From: Plantimonas leprariae
GTDB taxonomy: Bacteria > Pseudomonadota > Alphaproteobacteria > Rhizobiales > Rhizobiaceae
Direction: 5' to 3'
Length of the DNA stretch: 64,000 nt
NCBI RefSeq assembly: GCF_008802405.1
Contig: NZ_VZDO01000010.1
Coordinates: forward strand, 1 to 64,000
The stretch's first letter is position 1, and each line of letters begins with the position of its first letter. The notes under the pieces are model-generated. The model saw only the letters and a list, made by a program, of their open reading frames with translations, was not told the origin of the DNA and made no database searches. This document shows, piece after piece, positions 39,477-51,165 of this stretch. The translations under genes were made by a program, and so were the position numbers.

Positions 39477-39480
<4 letters not shown>
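37624..39480 (-). CDS. malQ: 4-alpha-glucanotransferase (amylomaltase)
   Basis: A GH77 enzyme of 618 residues that moves glucan segments between maltodextrins, making longer chains that TreY can use. Motifs include RIDHAMGLARLWWI (nucleophile Asp), VIGEDLGTVP (acid/base Glu) and CVSTHDLPTLKGWW. The start is a GTG at 39480 inside the treZ stop (GTGA), and the gene ends inside the treY start (ATGA): three genes in translational chain. Because maltose can be a donor or product, this enzyme could also feed maltokinase in the other operon. Confidence 0.93.
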
Positions 39481-41348
<1,868 letters not shown>

Positions 41349-41504: not shown

Positions 41505-42611
41505 CTACGCGGCGAGCCGGCGCTGCTCCTCGACCGCCTGGCGGCCATGCCCGACCCGGCCGTGTACGAGGTCGTGGATGAAGCCGAGCTTCGCCACTAC
41601 GGCCGGCGACAGGACGAACGGGTAGAGGTCCTGGTGCCCCATGGCGCGGTTGAACGAGTTCAGCGCGCCCGACAGCGCCAGCCACGCCTCGACGATCCGC
41701 TCGATCGTCGTCGCGTCGTCGTAGACCCGGAAGTCGAGGTCGGTGGTCAGAACCCCTTCCCGGTCGAGCCGCGGATGGATGGCGAGGCCGTAGGCGCCGC
41801 CGACCTCGATCGTGTCGACGATGTGGAGGTAGTGCGCCCAGGTCTCGGCGAAGTCCTCCCACGGATGCGCGCCCGCATAGGACGAGACGTATTCGCTCTG
41901 CCAGTCCGGCTTCGGCCCGGCGGCGTAGTGGTCCTGCAGCGCCTGGCCGTAATCCGCCCTGTCGTCGCCGAAGACGGCGCGGCACTCGTCCAGCGCCCCG
42001 CCGTCGCGCACGAGGAGGTCCCAGTACCAGTGGCCGATCTCGTGGCGGAAATGGCCGAGCAGCGTGCGGTAGGGCTCGCCCATCGCGTGCCGGCGCTCCT
42101 CGCGCACCGCGTCGTCGGCCTCAGCCAGCGCGATGGTGACGAGACCGTTGTCGTGGCCGGTCATCACCTTCTGCCCGTCCAGGTCGCTGAGGAACTGGAA
42201 GCCGAGCCCCTCCGGATGCTCGTTCCTCGTCACCAGCGGCAGCTTCAGCCGCAGCAGCGCGTAAAACAGCTGCTGCTTGGCTAGTTCCATCTTCTGCCAG
42301 AGGAGGACGTTCGCGGGCTCCGACAGGTCCGGGATCACCAGATTGAAGCGCGAGGCGAGCGAAAGCGTCTCCGGGCTCTCAAAGGGCAAGAGCCAGTTGC
42401 AGACGCCGTAGCGGTAGTTGTCGCAGTATTTCCAGCCCTCGCCGGCCGCGCCGCGCCCGACCGCCGTCCAGAAGCCGGTCTCGCGGTTCGGCTCCAGCGC
42501 CAGCATGCGGTTCGAGTCCGGCTCGTAGCCGAGCGCGTGCTTGCAGCGCTCGCAGACGACGTTCGAGAAGAACACCACCTGTTCGCAGGCGGGGCAGGAG
42601 AAGAGCTTCAT
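41505..42611 (-). CDS. Putative zinc metallopeptidase (Peptidase_Mx type)
   Basis: A cytosolic protein of 368 residues. An N-terminal zinc ribbon has CPAC (6-9) and CERC (20-23). A metallopeptidase-like region follows with HEIGHW (190-195), a classical HExxH zinc site, and a later ETWAHYLHIVDT block probably providing another ligand. The opening KLFSCPACEQVVFFSNVVC matches proteins usually called putative zinc-binding metallo-peptidase (PF15887). These are often found next to transglutaminase/DUF2126/ATP-grasp genes; here the divergent neighbour is such a transglutaminase-DUF2126 fusion. The substrate is unknown. The frame stays open for 1.2 kb upstream through the opposite-strand gene, but that part is a shadow. 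Confidence 0.85.
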   Translation of the reverse strand: MKLFSCPACEQVVFFSNVVCERCKHALGYEPDSNRMLALEPNRETGFWTAVGRGAAGEGWKYCDNYRYGVCNWLLPFESPETLSLASRFNLVIPDLSEPANVLLWQKMELAKQQLFYALLRLKLPLVTRNEHPEGLGFQFLSDLDGQKVMTGHDNGLVTIALAEADDAVREERRHAMGEPYRTLLGHFRHEIGHWYWDLLVRDGGALDECRAVFGDDRADYGQALQDHYAAGPKPDWQSEYVSSYAGAHPWEDFAETWAHYLHIVDTIEVGGAYGLAIHPRLDREGVLTTDLDFRVYDDATTIERIVEAWLALSGALNSFNRAMGHQDLYPFVLSPAVVAKLGFIHDLVHGRVGHGRQAVEEQRRLAA

Positions 42612-42736
42612 CGCGGAACCTTGAGCAGCGCGGCGGACGGGAAACGGCGGCGCGCGAGGCACGGCCGGGCAGGCGCGGACGGTGCGTAAATGGCTGGGGC
42701 CGGAGCCGGTTCCCATCCCGCTCCGCTCACTGAGCG

Positions 42737-42756
42737 GTCTTTTCGCAGATGCGAAG
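42737..42756. promoter_or_regulatory. Palindrome TTCGCA-N2-TGCGAA upstream of the transglutaminase gene
   Basis: Second copy of the 20-bp element at 31470-31489, here with central GA. It lies in the divergent region between the metallopeptidase and the transglutaminase-DUF2126 gene, 81 bp before the latter's ATG. Confidence 0.55.
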
Positions 42757-42836
42757 CGATCGAGGCCGAGGCGCTTGGCGACCCCGCGCGGGGTGCCTAT
42801 GGTCATGCGTCGCCGCAGCCGTTCCGCAAGGCCCCG

Positions 42837-45800
42837 ATGTCGATCCTCGCCGCCCTCCACCACGTCACGCATTACCGCTACGACCGGCCCGTCCGGCTGG
42901 GGCCGCAGGTGGTGCGGCTGCGCCCCGCGCCGCATTCGAGGACGCGCGTGCCGTCCTATTCGCTGAAGGTGCGGCCCGAGAAGCACTTCGTGAACTGGCA
43001 GCAGGACCCGTTCGGCAACTGGCTGGCCCGCTTCGTCTTTCCCAAACCGACCCGCGAGTTCCGCGTCGAGGTCGACCTTCTCGCCGACATGACGGTCTAC
43101 AATCCGTTCGACTTCTTCGTGGAGGAATCGGCCGAACGCTGGCCGTTCGCCTACGACGAGGCGTTGGCAAGCGACCTCGCGGCGTACCGTGAGCCGGCCG
43201 AGCCCGCGGGTCCGCGGCTTGCGGCCTTCCTCGCCACCGTCGACCGGACCCCGACACCGGTGGTGGACTTCCTCGTCGGGCTGAACCGGCGCTTCGCCGA
43301 CGAGGTCCGCTACCTGATCCGCATGGAGCCCGGCGTCCAGACGCCGGAGGAGACTTTGGAACGAGCGTCGGGCTCCTGCCGCGACACGTCGTGGCTCCTC
43401 GTCGAGGCGCTGCGGCACCTGGGGGTCGCGGCGCGCTTCGTCTCCGGCTACCTGATCCAGCTCAAACCCGATCTCGTCGCGCTCGATGGGCCGGCGGGGA
43501 CGGTGCACGACTTCACCGACCTCCACGCCTGGGCCGAGGCCTACATCCCCGGCGCCGGCTGGGTCGGGCTCGACCCGACTTCCGGCCTCCTCACCGGCGA
43601 GAGCCACGTGCCGCTCGCCGCGACGCCGCACTACCGCTCCGCCGCCCCGATCACCGGCGCGGTGGACTATGCCGAGACCGAGTTCCACTTCGACATGAGC
43701 GTCGTGCGCGTCGCCGAGCGCCCGCGCGTCTCCTATCCGTTCTCGGAGGAAAGCTGGCAGGCGCTCGACGCGCTCGGCCGGAAGGTCGACGCGGACCTCG
43801 CCGCCATGGACGTCCGCCTCACCACCGGCGGCGAGCCGACCTTCGTCTCGATCGACGACTTCGAGGCGCCCGAATGGAACGCCGAGGCCGTCGGGCCGGC
43901 AAAGCGCCCGCTCGCCGACGACCTCCTCCGCCGGTTGGCGAAGCGCTTCGGCCCAAGCGGCTTCCTGCATCACGGGCAGGGCAAGTGGTATCCGGGCGAG
44001 ACGCTGCCGCGCTGGACCTTCTCGCTGTACTGGCGGCGCGACGGCCTGCCGGTCTGGCGCGATCCGGAGCGGATCGGCCGCGAGGATTCCGCCGCCGAGC
44101 CGGGCGTCGCGGATGCCGAAACCCTCGTGAAGCGCGTGGCGGAACGGCTCGGGCTCGACCCCGGCAACGCCGCACCCGCCTTCGAGGACGCCTCCTACTG
44201 GATCGCCCGCGAGGCGCAACTGCCGGGGAACGTCGAGGCGAGCGATCCGAAGCTTACTGATAAGGAGGAGCGCGCCCGCCTCGCCCGCGTCTTCGACCGC
44301 CGCCTCGACCGGCCGGTCGGCTGGGTGCTGCCGCTGGCGGCCGAGGCGAAGGATGGCGAGGTTCCCTGGCGGTCGGAGCGCTGGCGCGTCCGCCGCAGCG
44401 CCCTGTTCCTCGCGCCCGGCGACTCGGCGATGGGCTACCGCCTGCCGCTGTCCTCGCTTTACCATCTGCCGCCGGAGGACTTTCCCTTCCTCCACCCGGC
44501 CGACCCGACGCGGGACCTGCCGCCGCTCCCGGACGCCATGCGCCAGTCGCTCGGCACCATGGCGCAGTCGCTGGCGACAGGCGGCGGCGAGCAGCGCATG
44601 GACGCGGAAGCGCCGCCGGCGAAACGCGAACCCGTCCCGGAGATCGAGGGGACGGTGCGCACCGCCTTCGCCGTCGAGCCGCGCGACGGCCGGCTCTGCG
44701 TGTTCATGCCGCCGCTGGAGGCGGTGGAGAGCTATCTGGCCCTCCTCGCCGCGGTCGAGGACGCCGCGGCCGGCATCGATCTGCCGTTGCTGATCGAGGG
44801 CTACGCGCCGCCGGCCGACCCGCGCCTGAACGTCATCCGCGTCGCGCCGGACCCCGGCGTCATCGAGGTGAACGTCCACCCGGCCGCGTCCTGGGACGAG
44901 GCGGTGGCGATCACCACCGCCGTCTACGAGGACGCGCGGGCCTCGCGGCTGCGGGCCGACAAGTTCATGCTCGACGGCCGGCATGTCGGGACGGGCGGCG
45001 GCAACCACGTCGTTCTGGGCGGGGCGACGCCGCTCGACTCGCCGTTCCTCCGCCGCCCCGACCTCCTGAAGTCGTTGGTGCTGACCTGGCAGCGGCACCC
45101 CTCGCTCTCCTACCTGTTCTCCGGCCTGTTCATCGGCCCGACGAGCCAGGCGCCGCGCATCGACGAGGCCCGGCACGACGCGCTCTACGAGCTGGAGATC
45201 GCCCTGGCGCAGGTGCCCTCGCCGGCCGACTCCGACGCCGTGCCGCCCTGGCTGGTGGACCGGCTGTTCCGCAACCTCCTCGTCGACGTCACCGGCAACA
45301 CGCACCGCTCCGAGATCTGCATCGACAAGCTCTATTCGCCGGACGGGCCGACCGGCCGGCTCGGCCTCGTCGAATTCCGCGGCTTCGAGATGCCGCCGGA
45401 CGCGCGGATGAGCCTCGCGCAGCAGCTCCTGATCCGCGCCCTGGTGGCCATGCTCTGGAAGACGCCGGCGGACGGCGGCTTCGCGCGCTGGGGGACGGCG
45501 CTCGCCGACCGCTTCATGCTGCCGGAATTCCTCTGGGCGGACTTCGAGACCGTCCTCGCCGAGCTCGCCCGCGCCGGCTATCCGCTCCGGCCCGAATGGT
45601 TCGAGGCCCAGCGCGAGTTCCGCTTCCCCTTCTGCGGCAAGGTCGAATACGAGGGCGTCTCGCTGGAACTCCGGCAGGCGCTGGAGCCCTGGCACGTCAT
45701 GGGCGAAACGGGGGCGATCGGCGGCACCGTGCGCTTCGTCGATTCCTCCGTCGAGCGCCTGCAGGTCAAGCTCGCGAACTTCGATCCGGCCCGCCACGTC

Positions 45801-46178
45801 GTCACCTGCAACGGCCGCGAGGTGCCGCTCACCGCGACCGGCCGCGTCGGCGAGGCGGTGGCGGGGGTGCGCTTCAAGGCTTGGGGACCGGCGACCGGGC
45901 TCCATCCGACGCTGCCCGTCCACGCACCGCTGACCTTCGACATCCACGACCGCTGGTCGCGCCGCTCGCTCGGCGGCTGCCGCTACCATGCCGCCCATCC
46001 CGGCGGGCGAAACTACGAGACGCGTCCCGTCAACGCCTACGAGGCCGAAGCCCGCCGCCTCGCGCGGTTTGAGGCGATCGGCCACACGCCCGGCGCATAC
46101 GAGCCGGCGCGGGAGGCGCCGCATCCGCTCTTCCCGATGACGCTGGATCTCCGCCGTCCGCCGCCGCCGACCGGCTGA
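42837..46178 (+). CDS. Transglutaminase-like/DUF2126 fusion protein
   Basis: A very large (1113-residue) protein. Residues 1-85 form the bacterial transglutaminase-like N-terminal domain ([23 protein letters not shown]). Residues about 150-260 are a transglutaminase-fold domain with an intact triad: Cys 181 (GSCRDTSWL), His 230 (DLHAWAEAY) and Asp 246 (LDPTSG). The remaining 800 residues are DUF2126 (COG4196), with [13 protein letters not shown] near 325 and [12 protein letters not shown] near 722. Such proteins usually occur with a circularly permuted ATP-grasp and an alpha-E protein in a proposed peptide ligation/modification system; those partners are not in this window. No export signal is seen. 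Confidence 0.9.
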
Positions 46179-46286
46179 GGGATGTTTCGAATTCGTTCAC
46201 CATCCGGGCGGACAGCCCGGCAACGCAAGGGAACCTTGGCGATTGCGGCCTAAGGTTGCGCCCGCCAACGCCAGTCGGACGGCCAG

Positions 46287-47468
46287 ATGCGAATCGACGT
46301 CAGCACGCTCTATCTCCTGATCGTGGGAACGACGTTCGTCGGCGCCTGCCTGACGCTCTGGCAGCGCCGGACCATGGCCGCCCACCAGCGCGAGATGGGT
46401 TTCTGGGCGGCCGGCTACGGGCTCGTCGGTCTCGGCTGTCTGCTCCGGATGTTCGACGGCGGCGTCGCGAGCTTCGTGTCGATCGGCCTGTCGAATGTCG
46501 CCCTCCTCCTCGGCTACGCCGCGATCACCGCGGGTGCGATGCTCTTCGGCGGCCGGCGGATCGCCCCGTCCTTCGTCGTCGCGGTGGCCGCCTTCGCGCT
46601 CGGCTGGCTGGTCTGGGGTCAGTACGCCCCGGTTGAAACGCGCATCGTCGTGACCGGGCTCGCGCTCGCGGGGCTCAGCTTCCAGGCGGCCAGCGCGCTC
46701 GGCGAGCGGCACGAGCCGGTCTCGCTCGCCTCGCGCCGCCTGGTGCGCGCGATGTTCGCGGCGCACGGCGCGTTCTTCCTCCTGCGCATCGGCGTGACGC
46801 TGTCCGGCATCGAAGGCGAGGTCCTGTTCAGCGGCGCGAACTTCGCCGCGACGATGATCGAGGGCGTGCTCTGGTCGGCCTTCGCACCCGCCGCGCTGCT
46901 GATGATGGCGCGCGAGGCGACGGAGCGGCGGCTGGTGGCGGCGTCCGAGACCGACTTCCTCACCGGCGTCGACAACCGTCGCGCCTTCACCGCCAAGGCG
47001 ACGCTGCTCCTCGCCGAGCAGCCGCTCGCCGCGCTGGTCGTCTTCGACCTCGACCATTTCAAGACGATCAACGACCGGCACGGCCATGGCGTGGGCGACG
47101 AGGTGCTTCGAACCTTCTGTCGCGTCGTTGCGAAGGAACTGTCGATCGGCGACGTCTTCGGCCGGCTCGGCGGCGAGGAGTTCGCCGCGGTCTTCGCGGG
47201 CTGCGGCGCGGAGGACGCCCGCCGCCTCGCGGCCGCGGTCTCGAAACTCTACACGACCGAAGTGGCGCTGCACTTCACGCTGTCGCTTGGCGCGACCGCC
47301 AGCGCCGGGGTCGCCGCCAACCGGCCGGGCGCCGACCTCGCCCGGCTCCTCGGCGAAGCGGACGGCGCGCTCTACCGGGCGAAGCGCGCCGGCCGCGATC
47401 AGGTGGTGATCGCGGAAGCGCCGCCCATCGTCGCGGCTTCGGCCCCGCTCGCGACGCGCGCCGCCTGA
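46287..47468 (+). CDS. Membrane-bound diguanylate cyclase (GGDEF)
   Basis: A 393-residue enzyme making cyclic di-GMP. The N-terminal 205 residues contain about six hydrophobic helices and form a membrane sensor of unrecognised type; the GGDEF domain (about 220-385) has the active GGEEF (295-299), [12 protein letters not shown] and [10 protein letters not shown]. The inhibitory I-site RxxD that sits six residues before GG in many cyclases reads SIGD (286-289), so the arginine is lost and product inhibition is probably weak. It ends 70 bp inside the convergent glgB gene. Confidence 0.92.
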
Positions 47469-49678
47469 GGCGCGTCCTCCGCGACCAGCACGAGCGTCGC
47501 CAGCGGCGGCAGCGTCAGCGACACCGAGAACGGCCGGCCGTGCGCGCCGACCGCCTCGGCCTGGCGGCCCCCCATGTTGCCGACGTTGGAGCCGGCGTAG
47601 ATCTCGGCGTCCGTGTTCATCCGCTCGACCCAGAAGGCGTCGTAGGGTACGCCGACCCGGTAGTTCTCGCGCACCACCGGCGTGAAGTTGCAGACCACCA
47701 GCGCCGCGCGGCCCTCGCCGTCCTTGCGCAGGAACGCGAGCACGCTCTCCCCTGCGTTCTCGGTGTCGACCCATTCGAAGCCGGCGGGGTCGCAGTCGAG
47801 CCGGTGCAACGCCGGCACCTCGCGGTAGAGCGTGTTGAGGTCGCGGATCAGCCGCTGCACGCCCTTGTGCTCGGGGTATTCGAGGAGGTGCCAATCCAGC
47901 GACTGGTCGTGGTTCCATTCCGCCGACTGCCCGAACTCGCCGCCCATGAACAGGAGCTTCTTGCCGGGATGCGCCCACATGAAGCCGTAGTAGCAGCGAA
48001 GGTTCGCGAACCGCTGCCACTGGTCGCCGGGCATCTTTCCGAGGATCGAGCCCTTGCCGTAGACCACCTCGTCGTGGCTGAGCGGCAGGATGAAGTTCTC
48101 CGAATAGGCGTAGACCATTCCGAAGGTCATGTGGTGGAAGTGGTAGCGCCGGTTGACCGGGTCCTCCTGCATGAAATGCAGCGTGTCGTGCATCCAGCCC
48201 ATGTTCCACTTGAAGTGGAAGCCGAGGCCTCCCGCATAGGTCGGACGCGAGACGTTCGGGAAGGCGGTCGACTCCTCCGCATGGGTCGAGGCGGCGGGAT
48301 AGAGGCCGCCGACGCGCTCGTTGGTCTCCTTCAGGAAGGCGATGGCTTCGAGGTTCTCGCGCCCGCCGAAGACGTTCGGCTCCCACTCGCCGTGCTTTCG
48401 CGAATAGTCGAGGTAGAGCATCGAGGCGACGGCATCGACGCGCAGAGCGTCGATGTGGAAGCGGTCGATCCAGTAGAGGGCGTTGGAGAACAGGAAGTTG
48501 CGGATCTCCGTCCGCCCGTAGTCGTAGATCAGCGTGTTCCAGTCCTGGTGGAAGCCGCGCCGCGGGTCCGGATGCTCGTAGAGCGCGGTGCCGTCGAAGC
48601 GCGCGAGGCCGTGGATGTCGGTCGGGAAGTGCCCCGGCACCCAGTCGACGATGACGCCGATGCCCGCCTGATGCAGCGCGTCGACGAGGCGCGCGAAGGC
48701 TTCCGGGCTGCCGTAGCGGGACGAGGGCGCGAAGAGGCCGATCGGCTGGTAGCCCCAGGAGCCGTAGAACGGGTGCTCGGAAACGGGCAGGAACTCGACA
48801 TGCGTGAAGCCCATCTCCTGCACGTAAGGCACGAGCTGGCCGGCGATCTGGTCGTAGTCGAGGACCGCGTTCCAGTCGCCGCGCCGCCAGGAGCCGAGAT
48901 GCACCTCGTAGATCGAGATCGGCTTGCCCGCGTCCTGCCAGTCCTGGCCTTGCGCGCGGAACTCCCCGTCCCGCCAGTCATGCTCGACGAGGCCCGTGAC
49001 GATCGAGGCGGTGGACGGCGCCTGCTCGTGCAGGAAGCCGACCGGGTCCTGCTTCGTCGGCTGCATGTCGCCGCGGATGCCGATGACCTCGAACTTGTAG
49101 ACCTCGCCCTTGCCGATGCCGGGAATGAAGATTTCCCACGAGCCGCAGTCGTGGCGGAAGCGCATGACGTGCCGCCGCCCGTCCCAGCCGTTGAAGTGGC
49201 CGATCACCGAGACGCGCTGCGCATCCGGCGCCAGCACCACGAAACGCACGCCCTGGACGCCCTCCATCTCGAAGGGATGCGCACCGAAGGCCTCGTAGAG
49301 GCGGTTGTGCGTGCCCTGCGCCAGATAGAAGGCGTCGAGCTCGCCGAGGATCGGGCCGAAGCGGTAGCTGTCCTCCTCCTCCCAGTCGGTGCCCTTGTGG
49401 TGGAAGCGGAAGCGGTAGGGCTGGCCGGCTCCAAGGCCCGGCACGAAGCCGGAATGCAGGCCGTCGTAGCCGAGCGCCTCCAGCCGCGCCAGCACCTTGC
49501 CGCCGGCGTCGATCACCTCCGCCCATTCCGCGCCGGGGCGATAGGCGCGCACGATCATGCCGCCCTCCGCCGCGTGCGGGCCCAGCACCGAGAACGGGTC
49601 GTAGTGCCGCCCGTGCTCCAGCGCCCAGGCCGCGCCTTCGCCCGGATGGTGGTGGATCGCCGTTTCAGTCTGGCTCAT
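47399..49678 (-). CDS. glgB: 1,4-alpha-glucan branching enzyme
   Basis: A GH13 branching enzyme of 759 residues that adds alpha-1,6 branches to glycogen or other alpha-glucan. An N-terminal CBM48-type region precedes the barrel. Motifs are [28 protein letters not shown] (nucleophile), [10 protein letters not shown] (acid/base) and [14 protein letters not shown]. The C-terminal 20 residues (from about 740) extend over the end of the opposite-strand diguanylate cyclase. The ATG at 49678 overlaps the mak stop by four bases. Third gene of glgE-mak-glgB. Confidence 0.95.
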
Positions 49679-51165
49679 GCGAGGACCTGCCGTTTTTCGA
49701 GAAGCGCGGTGATGCCGCGAAGGGGGATCGACAGCCATGCCGGGCGCATCGCGGCCTCGTAGCGAAGCTCGTAGAGCGCCTTCTGCAGCGTGAAGAGGTC
49801 GAGGAGCCGGCCGTTCGCCTCGTCGGCAAGGTCGATGCCGGACGCAGCCTGCCAGGCTTCGAGGAACGCCGCGCTCGTCCGGTCGCGCCAGTCGGTCGCG
49901 GCTGCCCGGAAGCGCACCGCCTCCTCGCCGCCGATCCGGTCGAGCGCCGCGAAGGCGGCGTAGTCGAAGGAGCGCAGCATGCCGGCGACGTCGCGAAGGG
50001 CTGAGAACTTCGCCCGCCGCTCCTCCAGCGAGGCGCCCGGCTCGCCCTCGAAATCGAGGATGGTGACGTCGCCCGCCGCCGAGACCAGCACCTGGCCGAG
50101 ATGGTAGTCGCCGTGGATGCGCGTGGCGAAGCTCGCCACCTTCATGTCGCGGAAGGAGTCGAAGAACGCGCCGATCCGGGCCTTGGCGTCGATGAGACGG
50201 TCGACATCGGCGCGATCGGCTTCCGCCAGATTCGGACGGACGCGCTCCAGCACCGCCAGCGCCTCCTCGGTCTCGTGGCGCGCGCCGGCGACGAAGCCGT
50301 CGAGACGCGCCGCGTCGATCGGCTCCGGCTCGAAGGCCGGATCGCCGGTGCGGGTGGCAAGGCCCGCATGCATCTCGCCGGTGCGCCGCCCGAGCACGGG
50401 ACCGGCGTCGAAACGGTTCGCCGGCGTTTCGCCGTGGAGTTCGAGCACGAGCTCGTCCAGCACCACCGCCCAGGCGTCGCCGCGGTTCTCGACCCGCTCG
50501 AACAGCGCCGCCACCGCGGCTTCCGTGCCGTCGCCGCGACGCAGCACCGCCGAACCGAGGAGGGCCGGCGCGGCGCGAAACTGCGTCCTCTCGGTCAGGA
50601 AGCGCGTCACCTCGAGTTCCGGCTGGATGCCGTCGCGCAGCCGTCGGTAGAGCTTCAGGATCGCCACCGGACCCACCAGAATGGATGTGTTCGACTGCTC
50701 GCCGCTGATCGGGCGGATATGCTCCGGCGCGATCTCGCGCGCCGCCGCCGCCAGATCCTTCGCGGCTTCGGAAACCTCGACGCGCAACGCCGCCCCGCCG
50801 TCCAGCGGCAGGTCGCGCGTTTCCGTCAGGAGCGCGACGAAGGCCGCGACCAGCGCCCCGTCGCGCGCACCGTCGACGGCCCCGCCCGCGACGCGATGAC
50901 TCGGATCGGCCGCCGTCCCGCCGCTCGACAGCGGCAGGAAATAGCTCTGCCGGCCGTCCACCGTGTCGAGCCGGCTTTCCGCCAGCACGTAGTCCGGATG
51001 GCCCGGCAACGTGCCGAGCACGGTCGTGCCGGCGCCGTTCGACGCGCCGGACTTCGCCGCGAACCAGCGCTGCTGGGCGACGAAGGCGGCGACGTCGGCA
51101 TCGGCGAAGGAAGCGGAGGCGTCCGCGGGCGACTGGTCGTGCGGCAGGGAACCGGGCTGGCTCAT
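49675..51165 (-). CDS. mak: Maltokinase (maltose-1-phosphate forming)
   Basis: A 496-residue kinase of the aminoglycoside-phosphotransferase fold. The family N-cap is visible ([16 protein letters not shown]), followed by [23 protein letters not shown], the catalytic loop [12 protein letters not shown] (about 345) and the metal Asp in [16 protein letters not shown]. It phosphorylates maltose with ATP to maltose 1-phosphate, the donor for GlgE. In many bacteria this domain is fused to or adjacent to trehalose synthase (TreS); here it is separate and TreS is absent from the operon. It starts 49 bp after the glgE stop and is coupled to glgB. Confidence 0.9.

What the first reader, a model, noticed from the sequence alone, without database searches (positions are those of the whole stretch)
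41505..46178. Metallopeptidase divergent from a giant transglutaminase-DUF2126 protein: candidate peptide-modifying system
A HEIGHW zinc peptidase with a zinc ribbon and a 1113-residue transglutaminase (triad Cys 181, His 230, Asp 246) fused to DUF2126 share a divergent control region. Homologues cluster with circularly permuted ATP-grasp and alpha-E proteins in a proposed but poorly characterised ligation system. Here the pair sits inside trehalose/glycogen genes, and the usual partners are absent from the window. Target and product are unknown.
Basis: partly seen in the sequence, partly recalled or inferred. Interest (0 to 1): 0.62.

Follow-up and report, generated by a model that had tools for sequence, protein, structure and literature searches.

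The report
Orphaned transglutaminase-amidoligase beside zinc peptidase
A large bacterial enzyme that looks able both to make and to cut amide bonds sits back to back with a zinc peptidase; both belong to a known but functionally unsolved system linked elsewhere to nitrogen limitation, and this species has lost the enzyme's usual partner genes.

Summary
A 1113-aa protein (transglutaminase triad C181/H230/D246 fused to DUF2126) is divergent, across 225 bp, from a 368-aa zinc-ribbon/HEIGH peptidase. In a predicted model DUF2126 resembles glutamine synthetases, in line with Pfam's 'putative amidoligase'. The pairing is real: linked in 11 of 31 order-level genomes holding both families, and divergent in two Caballeronia records. 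The system is known as a prediction, its function unsolved; published data put homologous clusters under nitrogen limitation/NtrC.

What is unusual here is the reduction. DUF2126 is normally followed by an ATP-grasp/alpha-E fusion and a second transglutaminase. Both are gone: no ATP-grasp or alpha-E remnant lies in the window, and whole-genome family searches find no second ATP-grasp or alpha-E. Four of four genus mates examined keep them; Mangrovicella lost them independently. The genome's only ATP-grasp and alpha-E genes are in a distant Anbu-type operon that itself lacks a transglutaminase. The trehalose/glycogen setting is conserved synteny in the clade, not an insertion. I favour a reduced system in which TG-DUF2126 works with that operon; early decay after partner loss is a serious rival, with weak support from substitution counts. 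No biochemistry is shown.

The parts
41505..42611 (-). Zinc-ribbon + Peptidase_Mx metallopeptidase, 368 aa
   Evidence: aligned with 24 homologues (C6, C9, C20, C23, H190, H194, E252, D253, E256, H260 invariant in all 25)
42030..42044 (-). HEIGH motif (residues 190-194)
42612..42836 (.). 225-bp divergent intergenic region; no conserved sigma-54 site found
42837..46178 (+). Transglutaminase-DUF2126 fusion, 1113 aa
42855..43082 (+). Bact_transglu_N domain (residues 7-82)
43242..43577 (+). Transglut_core (residues 136-247) with C181 (codon from 43377), H230 (43524), D246 (43572)
   Evidence: the three residues invariant in 34 sequences; fold match of residues 1-297 to 3isr, Z 13.7, rmsd 8.7
43668..46154 (+). 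DUF2126 domain (residues 278-1106); glutamine-synthetase-like fold in the predicted model over about residues 299-932
46179..46286 (.). 108-bp gap where the ATP-grasp/alpha-E fusion and second transglutaminase lie in four genus mates; no remnant found
39477..41348 (-). TreZ, flanking gene (conserved synteny, not claimed as part of the system)
46287..47468 (+). GGDEF protein, flanking gene on the far side of the loss
47399..49738 (-). GlgB, flanking gene (conserved synteny)

Best explanation
The pair is the surviving core of an ATP-dependent amide-ligation/removal system that is probably induced by nitrogen limitation. DUF2126, a glutamine-synthetase-fold amidoligase, joins an amine or amino acid to a carboxylate on a peptide or protein. 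The transglutaminase domain on the same chain cuts or transfers an amide on the same substrate. The divergent zinc peptidase trims the substrate or product. In most relatives a fused ATP-grasp/alpha-E ligase and a second transglutaminase complete the operon. In this species those two genes were lost after divergence from its sampled genus mates, so the fusion protein now most likely works with the only ATP-grasp and alpha-E left, those of the Anbu-type operon on contig C22, an operon that lacks its own transglutaminase. SHOWN: gene content, loss, synteny, linkage, intact triad and conserved residues, GS-like fold in a predicted model. INFERRED: ligase and amidase activities, substrate, nitrogen control in this organism, cooperation in trans with the Anbu-type operon.
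For: The triad and many DUF2126 residues are invariant in 34 sequences, the window's included. The DUF2126 region aligns to glutamine synthetases and GS-fold ligases (Z 10.0-11.5, 244-283 residues, rmsd 3.8-5.6 A; YbdK among them; Dop at Z 9.2). Pfam calls it a putative amidoligase. The genome has one CP-ATP-grasp and one alpha-E, followed by an Anbu-like gene, with no transglutaminase there. A standalone transglutaminase follows the unfused ATP-grasp gene in 66 of 67 genomes without DUF2126, the 67th apparently cut by a contig end; it is missing in 9 genomes of the Aurantimonas-type clade, all with TG-DUF2126. Precedent for pairing with an unfused ATP-grasp/alpha-E: L129 has ATP-grasp, alpha-E and TG-DUF2126 in a row, and one of two Caballeronia records has both in one locus. 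Peptidase linkage: 11 of 31. Nitrogen: PMC5491218 (passages) lists I35_5080-83 (DUF404/407, DUF403, a transglutaminase, a 'large protein' with transglutaminase-like domain) as targets of both NtrC and sigma-54; PMC8050072 (table passage) gives PP_2685 and PP_2688 of the Anbu operon log2 fold 4.4 and 4.0, and treY 2.2, on nitrate versus ammonium. The ORF is intact; pairwise dN/dS with the nearest relative is 0.25.
Against: No interaction or co-expression data exist for this organism. The loss of the transglutaminase from the Anbu-type operon appears to be one clade-level event shared with members that keep the DUF2126 partners, so it is not a matched compensatory change. A further transglutaminase gene pair remains on contig C8, so TG-DUF2126 is not the only candidate for the missing role. 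The window's TG-DUF2126 shows weak signs of relaxation: nonsynonymous/synonymous codon changes 35/51 versus 16/61 in its nearest relative (Fisher p=0.007), relative-rate test p=0.089, branch-length ratio 1.57 to the relative against 0.96-1.37 for five neighbours (and 3.43 for the maltokinase-like gene, 1.06 for GGDEF). No conserved sigma-54-like site was found in the intergenic region. In Y. bercovieri no specific interactions of the Anbu-operon proteins and no Anbu peptidase activity were detected (PMC6376114, passages). That I35_5083/BCAM1236 is a DUF2126 fusion is inferred from its description, not checked by sequence.
Confidence: 0.4

Rival explanations
1. The fusion protein is an orphan in early decay: after loss of its fused ATP-grasp/alpha-E partner it has no function left and is drifting.
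For: All four genus mates examined keep the partners, so the loss happened within the genus. The window copy has the lowest DUF2126 profile score of the 32 family members with it (1292 bits; next 1310), 7 private changes at otherwise invariant columns among 34 sequences, a longer branch than its nearest relative (ratio 1.57) and relatively more nonsynonymous codon changes (35/51 versus 16/61, p=0.007).
Against: The ORF is intact over 1113 codons; triad and other invariant residues are kept. Pairwise dN/dS is 0.25. The relative-rate test is not significant (p=0.089) and GlgB shows a similar codon-change shift (p=0.031). Relatives that keep the fusion partner have as many or more private changes (13 in L105, 6 in L084). 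The peptidase shows no significant acceleration.
Confidence: 0.27
2. TG-DUF2126 and the zinc peptidase form a self-sufficient two-gene module; the ATP-grasp/alpha-E enzymes and Anbu are separate pathways that merely share ancestry.
For: The divergent pair recurs across Alpha- and Betaproteobacteria. It persists after loss of the fused partner in two lineages (window and Mangrovicella; their monophyly is rejected, p-AU 7.6e-6). Peptidase_Mx also sits divergently beside a standalone transglutaminase in G004, a genome without a DUF2126 match (L033).
Against: 70 of 72 named loci over 20 kb keep the ATP-grasp/alpha-E fusion near DUF2126. 20 of 31 genomes holding both Peptidase_Mx and DUF2126 do not have them within 12 kb. 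Among the sampled DUF2126 genomes all but G123 (56% complete) still hold at least one CP-ATP-grasp.
Confidence: 0.25
3. The pair acts specifically on trehalose/glycogen metabolism (for example by modifying its enzymes).
For: Conserved synteny with TreY/MalQ/TreZ and GlgB in the Aurantimonas-type clade and genus mates; a glycogen phosphorylase and GlgB follow the operon in Rhizobium-type loci, and GlgB is near in L029; P. putida treY is itself nitrogen responsive.
Against: 41 of 72 named loci over 20 kb have no such gene in the fetched stretch, Mesorhizobium and Devosia loci among them. Neighbouring strands differ, so no shared operon is implied. Synteny mostly within one family is weak evidence.
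Confidence: 0.08

Closest known systems
Amidoligase / alpha-E / transglutaminase network predicted by Iyer et al. 2009 (paper not held; known through citing papers and by recall)
   Same: TG, DUF2126, CP-ATP-grasp, alpha-E and an Anbu-like gene all present in the genome
   Different: The fused ATP-grasp/alpha-E and second transglutaminase that normally follow DUF2126 are lost; remaining parts lie at two distant loci
Anbu operon (ATP-grasp, alpha-E, transglutaminase, Anbu; described in PMC6376114 and PMC5666114, passages)
   Same: ATP-grasp, alpha-E and Anbu-like gene adjacent on C22
   Different: No transglutaminase between alpha-E and Anbu, as in other members of the Aurantimonas-type clade examined
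NtrC-regulated I35_5080-83 cluster of Burkholderia cenocepacia H111 (PMC5491218, passages)
   Same: By its annotation holds DUF404/407, DUF403, a transglutaminase and a large transglutaminase protein
   Different: One unsplit cluster; regulation in the window's organism untested; DUF2126 in it not checked by sequence
Depupylase Dop (and by recall Pup ligase PafA), glutamine-synthetase-fold tagging enzymes
   Same: Shared fold (Dop 5lrt Z 9.2)
   Different: By recall no transglutaminase domain there; resemblance of fold only

Membership tests
Type-B DUF2126 operon (my label: TG-DUF2126, fused ATP-grasp/alpha-E, second TG) | TG-DUF2126 fusion | tested here: met
Type-B DUF2126 operon (my label: TG-DUF2126, fused ATP-grasp/alpha-E, second TG) | Fused CP-ATP-grasp/alpha-E next to it or elsewhere in the genome | tested here: not met
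   (one match each, separate genes on C22); assembly 100% complete by the tool's estimate
Type-B DUF2126 operon (my label: TG-DUF2126, fused ATP-grasp/alpha-E, second TG) | Second transglutaminase downstream | tested here: not met
   none in the window. Genome-wide only two Bact_transglu_N matches, the fusion and a gene on C8; the C8 pair is not next to DUF2126 and is about 26-33% like second transglutaminases of relatives, which are 44-48% like the Mesorhizobium one within the clade
Anbu operon | CP-ATP-grasp and alpha-E adjacent | tested here: met
   (C22)
Anbu operon | Anbu gene | tested here: met
   C22, 254 aa; weak Pfam Proteasome match E=9.8e-6; 42-79% identical genes beside or near the same pair in 9 of 14 stretches with that pair that were looked at beyond G000's own; the name Anbu rests on position and recall
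Anbu operon | Transglutaminase in the operon | tested here: not met
   109 bp between alpha-E and the Anbu-like gene
Transglutaminase-like cysteine hydrolases | Cys-His-Asp triad in Transglut_core | tested here: met
Transglutaminase-like cysteine hydrolases | Catalytic activity (peptidase, amidase or transfer) | not testable with these tools
   needs assay
Glutamine-synthetase-fold amidoligases | GS-like fold | tested here: met
   AlphaFold2 model mean pLDDT 67, pTM 0.61; GS matches Z 10.0-11.5. Foldseek alone is weak (best E 0.035) and sequence profiles of PDB chains find no GS
Glutamine-synthetase-fold amidoligases | Metal/ATP ligands of the active site | tested here: inconclusive
   invariant acidic, Arg and His residues exist, e.g. 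E333, E677, E846, R848; assignment to GS ligands is by recall
Peptidase_Mx zinc peptidases | HExxH and zinc ribbon | tested here: met
Peptidase_Mx zinc peptidases | Gluzincin-type peptidase fold | tested here: inconclusive
   model pLDDT 79, pTM 0.83; no Foldseek match at E<0.001; best Z 8.8 to catalytic domains of other zinc peptidases, 6.5 to 4l7a, a putative zinc-binding metallopeptidase

The most novel reading that the evidence does not exclude
Two paralogous amidoligase systems have collapsed into one. TG-DUF2126 has taken over the transglutaminase step of a transglutaminase-less Anbu operon, giving a minimal, genetically clean version (one ATP-grasp, one alpha-E, one Anbu, one TG-DUF2126, one zinc peptidase) of a widespread nitrogen-starvation peptide-ligation pathway; the same reduction arose independently in Mangrovicella.
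Probability: 0.23. Interest if true: 0.62.

Novelty: new variant of a known kind. Interest (0 to 1): 0.4.

Why it matters
DUF2126, CP-ATP-grasp and alpha-E are in 63, 109 and 109 of 150 sampled genomes of this order, and I found no paper giving their substrate or product. Most DUF2126 genomes carry two overlapping systems, so single mutants may be masked. A genome with only one ATP-grasp, one alpha-E and one TG-DUF2126 would remove much of that redundancy and make the question testable by a few deletions and peptidomics. The recurrent link to a zinc peptidase adds a part that should be included in any reconstitution.

Tried and rejected
Recent transfer of the pair into the trehalose/glycogen block: first suggested because identity is higher to f34 loci (72-75%) than to other f1 genomes (67-68%); dropped because the whole block is syntenic in Aurantimonas, Aureimonas, Mangrovicella and genus mates.

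One shared loss of the partners with Mangrovicella: rejected by the tree and AU test (p 7.6e-6) and by genus mates that keep them.

TG-less ATP-grasp/alpha-E pairs in f30 and f44 as further cases of the same loss: dropped. In the three stretches looked at (L128, L129, L132) the pair is a divergent subtype (29-52% identical) with no Anbu match, so they serve only as precedent for association. G087 was also dropped: its transglutaminase lies about 7 kb away on the other strand.

Sigma-54 promoter in the divergent region: the best site scores 14.7 of 17.8 with a home-made weight table; 34 sites in the window reach 14.6, and it is not conserved in relatives. Not claimed. No other promoter scan was made.

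Sequence evidence for a GS relationship: none from PDB sequence searches; only the fold comparison gives it.

Literature: Iyer 2009 is not held. Searches for COG4196, COG4307, DUF2126, Peptidase_Mx, Bact_transglu_N and related terms (listings capped at 20) listed no paper that tests DUF2126 or pairs it with Peptidase_Mx; unheld or unlisted papers may. PMC12239564 (passages) concerns a different system (inactive transglutaminase fused to seven transmembrane helices, retropepsin). PMC13207237 and PMC8407117 (passages) only list an ATP-grasp gene or its COG.

I also ran to replace neighbour names that had rested on recall.


Full report
OBSERVATION. Both genes are as described. The metallopeptidase is 41505-42611 minus, 368 aa; the fusion is 42837-46178 plus, 1113 aa, with C181, H230 and D246; 225 bp separate the start codons. 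Pfam gives Peptidase_Mx plus a zinc ribbon for the first, and Bact_transglu_N, Transglut_core and DUF2126 ('putative amidoligase') for the second. NCBIfam matches neither at E 0.001. Third-position GC of 93-94% in both agrees with real genes. TreY, MalQ, TreZ and GlgB are over NCBIfam cut-offs.

WHAT THE PARTS LOOK LIKE. An AlphaFold2 model of the fusion, from 34 sequences (the other 33 are 65-75% identical to it), has mean pLDDT 67 and pTM 0.61. Residues 1-297 match the cysteine protease-like 3isr (Z 13.7, 230 aligned, rmsd 8.7). Residues of about 299-932 match glutamine synthetases and related ligases (Z 10.0-11.5, 244-283 residues, rmsd 3.8-5.6 A), including YbdK and, at Z 9.2, Dop. Foldseek alone gives only E 0.035-0.07 for the best of these and searches of PDB sequences find no GS, so the assignment rests on the fold comparison plus Pfam's label. 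The peptidase model (pLDDT 79, 10 sequences) has no Foldseek match at E<0.001; VIA-align puts it weakly (best Z 8.8) with other zinc peptidases. In 25 aligned peptidases C6, C9, C20, C23, H190, H194, E252, D253, E256 and H260 are invariant. Catalysis is not shown for any of these.

THE USUAL SYSTEM. In 150 genomes of the order, DUF2126 is in 63, CP-ATP-grasp in 109, alpha-E in 109, Peptidase_Mx in 44, 41 of them over the cut-off, Bact_transglu_N in 110. Of the 63 DUF2126 genomes, 59 have two or more CP-ATP-grasp matches; the exceptions are G000 (this genome), G089 (84% complete), G134 (78%) and G123 (56%, none). In the family sample 32 of 61 have DUF2126; of these 32, all but G000 and G190 have a second CP-ATP-grasp match. 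G190 is Mangrovicella endophytica, judged by matching coordinates with L041. The typical layout is TG-DUF2126, then a fused ATP-grasp/alpha-E gene of about 800-850 aa, then a transglutaminase of about 300 aa. Of 80 named loci, 72 are longer than 20 kb and 70 of these have the fusion; the misses are L041 and L063, a MAG. Of the 8 shorter loci, L035 and L093 show none; both end within 700 bases of the TG-DUF2126 end.

THE PEPTIDASE LINK. Of 41 genomes with Peptidase_Mx over the cut-off, 31 also have DUF2126 (Fisher p=6e-7 for co-occurrence, not corrected for kinship), and in 11 of 31 the two are within 12 kb on one contig, where well under one is expected by chance. Nine of the 11 are divergent; in G104 the peptidase is upstream on the same strand and in G118 it lies downstream and convergent. 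Both Caballeronia records looked at have the peptidase divergent from TG-DUF2126; in one, an unfused ATP-grasp/alpha-E pair is next door. The Azospirillum record has no peptidase match within 9 kb. In G004, without a DUF2126 match, the peptidase is divergent from a standalone transglutaminase. In the other 20 of 31 genomes the genes are not within 12 kb.

THE REDUCTION HERE. All six genomes held for the genus have a DUF2126 match. I fetched four of the five others (the fifth is 65% complete with a fragment); all four have the fusion and second transglutaminase between TG-DUF2126 and the GGDEF gene. The window has 108 bp there and no ATP-grasp, alpha-E or second-transglutaminase remnant was found. 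The end of TG-DUF2126 aligns to the same place in L145 and L144; the GGDEF side aligns to L144 (65% over 168 bp, E=0.003) and only weakly to L145 (24 bp, E=0.12). The nearest relative (L145; GlgB 87%, TreY 85% identical, TG-DUF2126 79-80%) still has the genes, so the loss happened within the genus. Mangrovicella lost them separately: a tree of eight block genes groups it (support 100) with L118 and L119, which keep them, and monophyly with the window is rejected (p-AU 7.6e-6). These trees use genes of the same block, including the pair itself, with some genes missing in some loci.

WHAT REMAINS ELSEWHERE. Contig C22 has CP-ATP-grasp (470 aa), alpha-E (315 aa) and an Anbu-like gene (254 aa) in a row, with 109 bp between alpha-E and the Anbu-like gene where Mesorhizobium (L131) has a transglutaminase. 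In genomes without DUF2126 a transglutaminase follows the unfused ATP-grasp in 66 of 67; in the 67th (G078) the gene lies on another contig beside a truncated alpha-E, apparently a contig break. In the 90 sampled DUF2126 genomes with an unfused ATP-grasp, one follows in 77 (46 and 31 by eye); three of these, in f44, are TG-DUF2126 itself. It does not in 13: nine Aurantimonas-type genomes including this one, three of f30 with a divergent pair, and G087 with a transglutaminase about 7 kb away. The nine look like one clade-level event. Of the nine, the Anbu-like gene directly follows alpha-E in six, lies farther off in two (G190, G185) and was not seen in the stretch of G176. Contig C8 carries two further transglutaminase genes in tandem, so TG-DUF2126 is not the only such enzyme left.

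IS IT STILL UNDER SELECTION? The ORF is intact, and dN/dS to L145 is 0.25, against 0.13 (GlgB), 0.20-0.23 (peptidase, TreY, MalQ, TreZ), 0.35 (maltokinase-like) and 0.50 (GGDEF). On a fixed topology the window/L145 branch ratio is 1.57 for TG-DUF2126, 0.96-1.37 for peptidase, GlgB, TreY, MalQ and TreZ, 1.06 for GGDEF and 3.43 for the maltokinase-like gene. In codons where the outgroups L144, L142 and L143 agree, the window has 35 nonsynonymous and 51 synonymous private changes and L145 has 16 and 61 (p=0.007); GlgB shows the same trend (p=0.031); Tajima's test is 72 versus 53 (p=0.089). So strong decay is unlikely but mild relaxation is not excluded. These tests are uncorrected for multiple comparisons.

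REGULATION AND LITERATURE. In B. cenocepacia H111 a four-gene cluster annotated as DUF404/407, DUF403, transglutaminase and large transglutaminase protein is a target of NtrC and sigma-54 (PMC5491218, passages). In P. putida the Anbu-operon genes PP_2685 and PP_2688 and also treY rise on nitrate versus ammonium (PMC8050072, table passage). Anbu papers describe the operon; [quoted passage not shown] PMC5666114, passages). A metagenome correlation study groups these domains with urea metabolism (PMC3597751, passages). The founding prediction (Iyer 2009) could not be read.

CONCLUSION. A known, unsolved system; a well-supported peptidase partner; and a reduced layout in this species. The most useful reading is that TG-DUF2126 now serves the one remaining ATP-grasp/alpha-E/Anbu-type operon; that step is inference.

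Noticed in passing
L015:7828-9643 (contig C8 of the window's genome): Two transglutaminase genes in tandem (303 and 250 aa, both with Transglut_core); Mangrovicella has a similar pair on its contig C7 (L133). Partners and role unknown.
   Followed up: partly
window 49675-51165: The maltokinase-like gene has diverged much faster than its neighbours: 66% identical to the nearest relative against 87% for GlgB next door; Tajima test p=0.0038.
   Followed up: no
window 46287-47468: The GGDEF protein keeps its position in much of the clade but is only 41% identical to that of the nearest relative.
   Followed up: no
L035:8724-9803 (Aurantimonas marianensis): The peptidase of this relative has the HExxH glutamate replaced by valine in the alignment.
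   Followed up: no
L063: A Hyphomicrobiales MAG with TG-DUF2126 but no ATP-grasp/alpha-E fusion match in the 10 kb on either side: a possible third loss or relocation.
   Followed up: no
G185:C1:51871-52965: The fused ATP-grasp of this Aurantimonas-type genome matches the profile in two pieces (1-277 and 325-374), perhaps with a lost segment.
   Followed up: no
L042, L043 and other Rhizobium-type loci: The TG-DUF2126 operon is followed within about 5 kb by a glycogen phosphorylase (checked in L043) and GlgB, a second glycogen neighbourhood distinct from the window's.
   Followed up: partly
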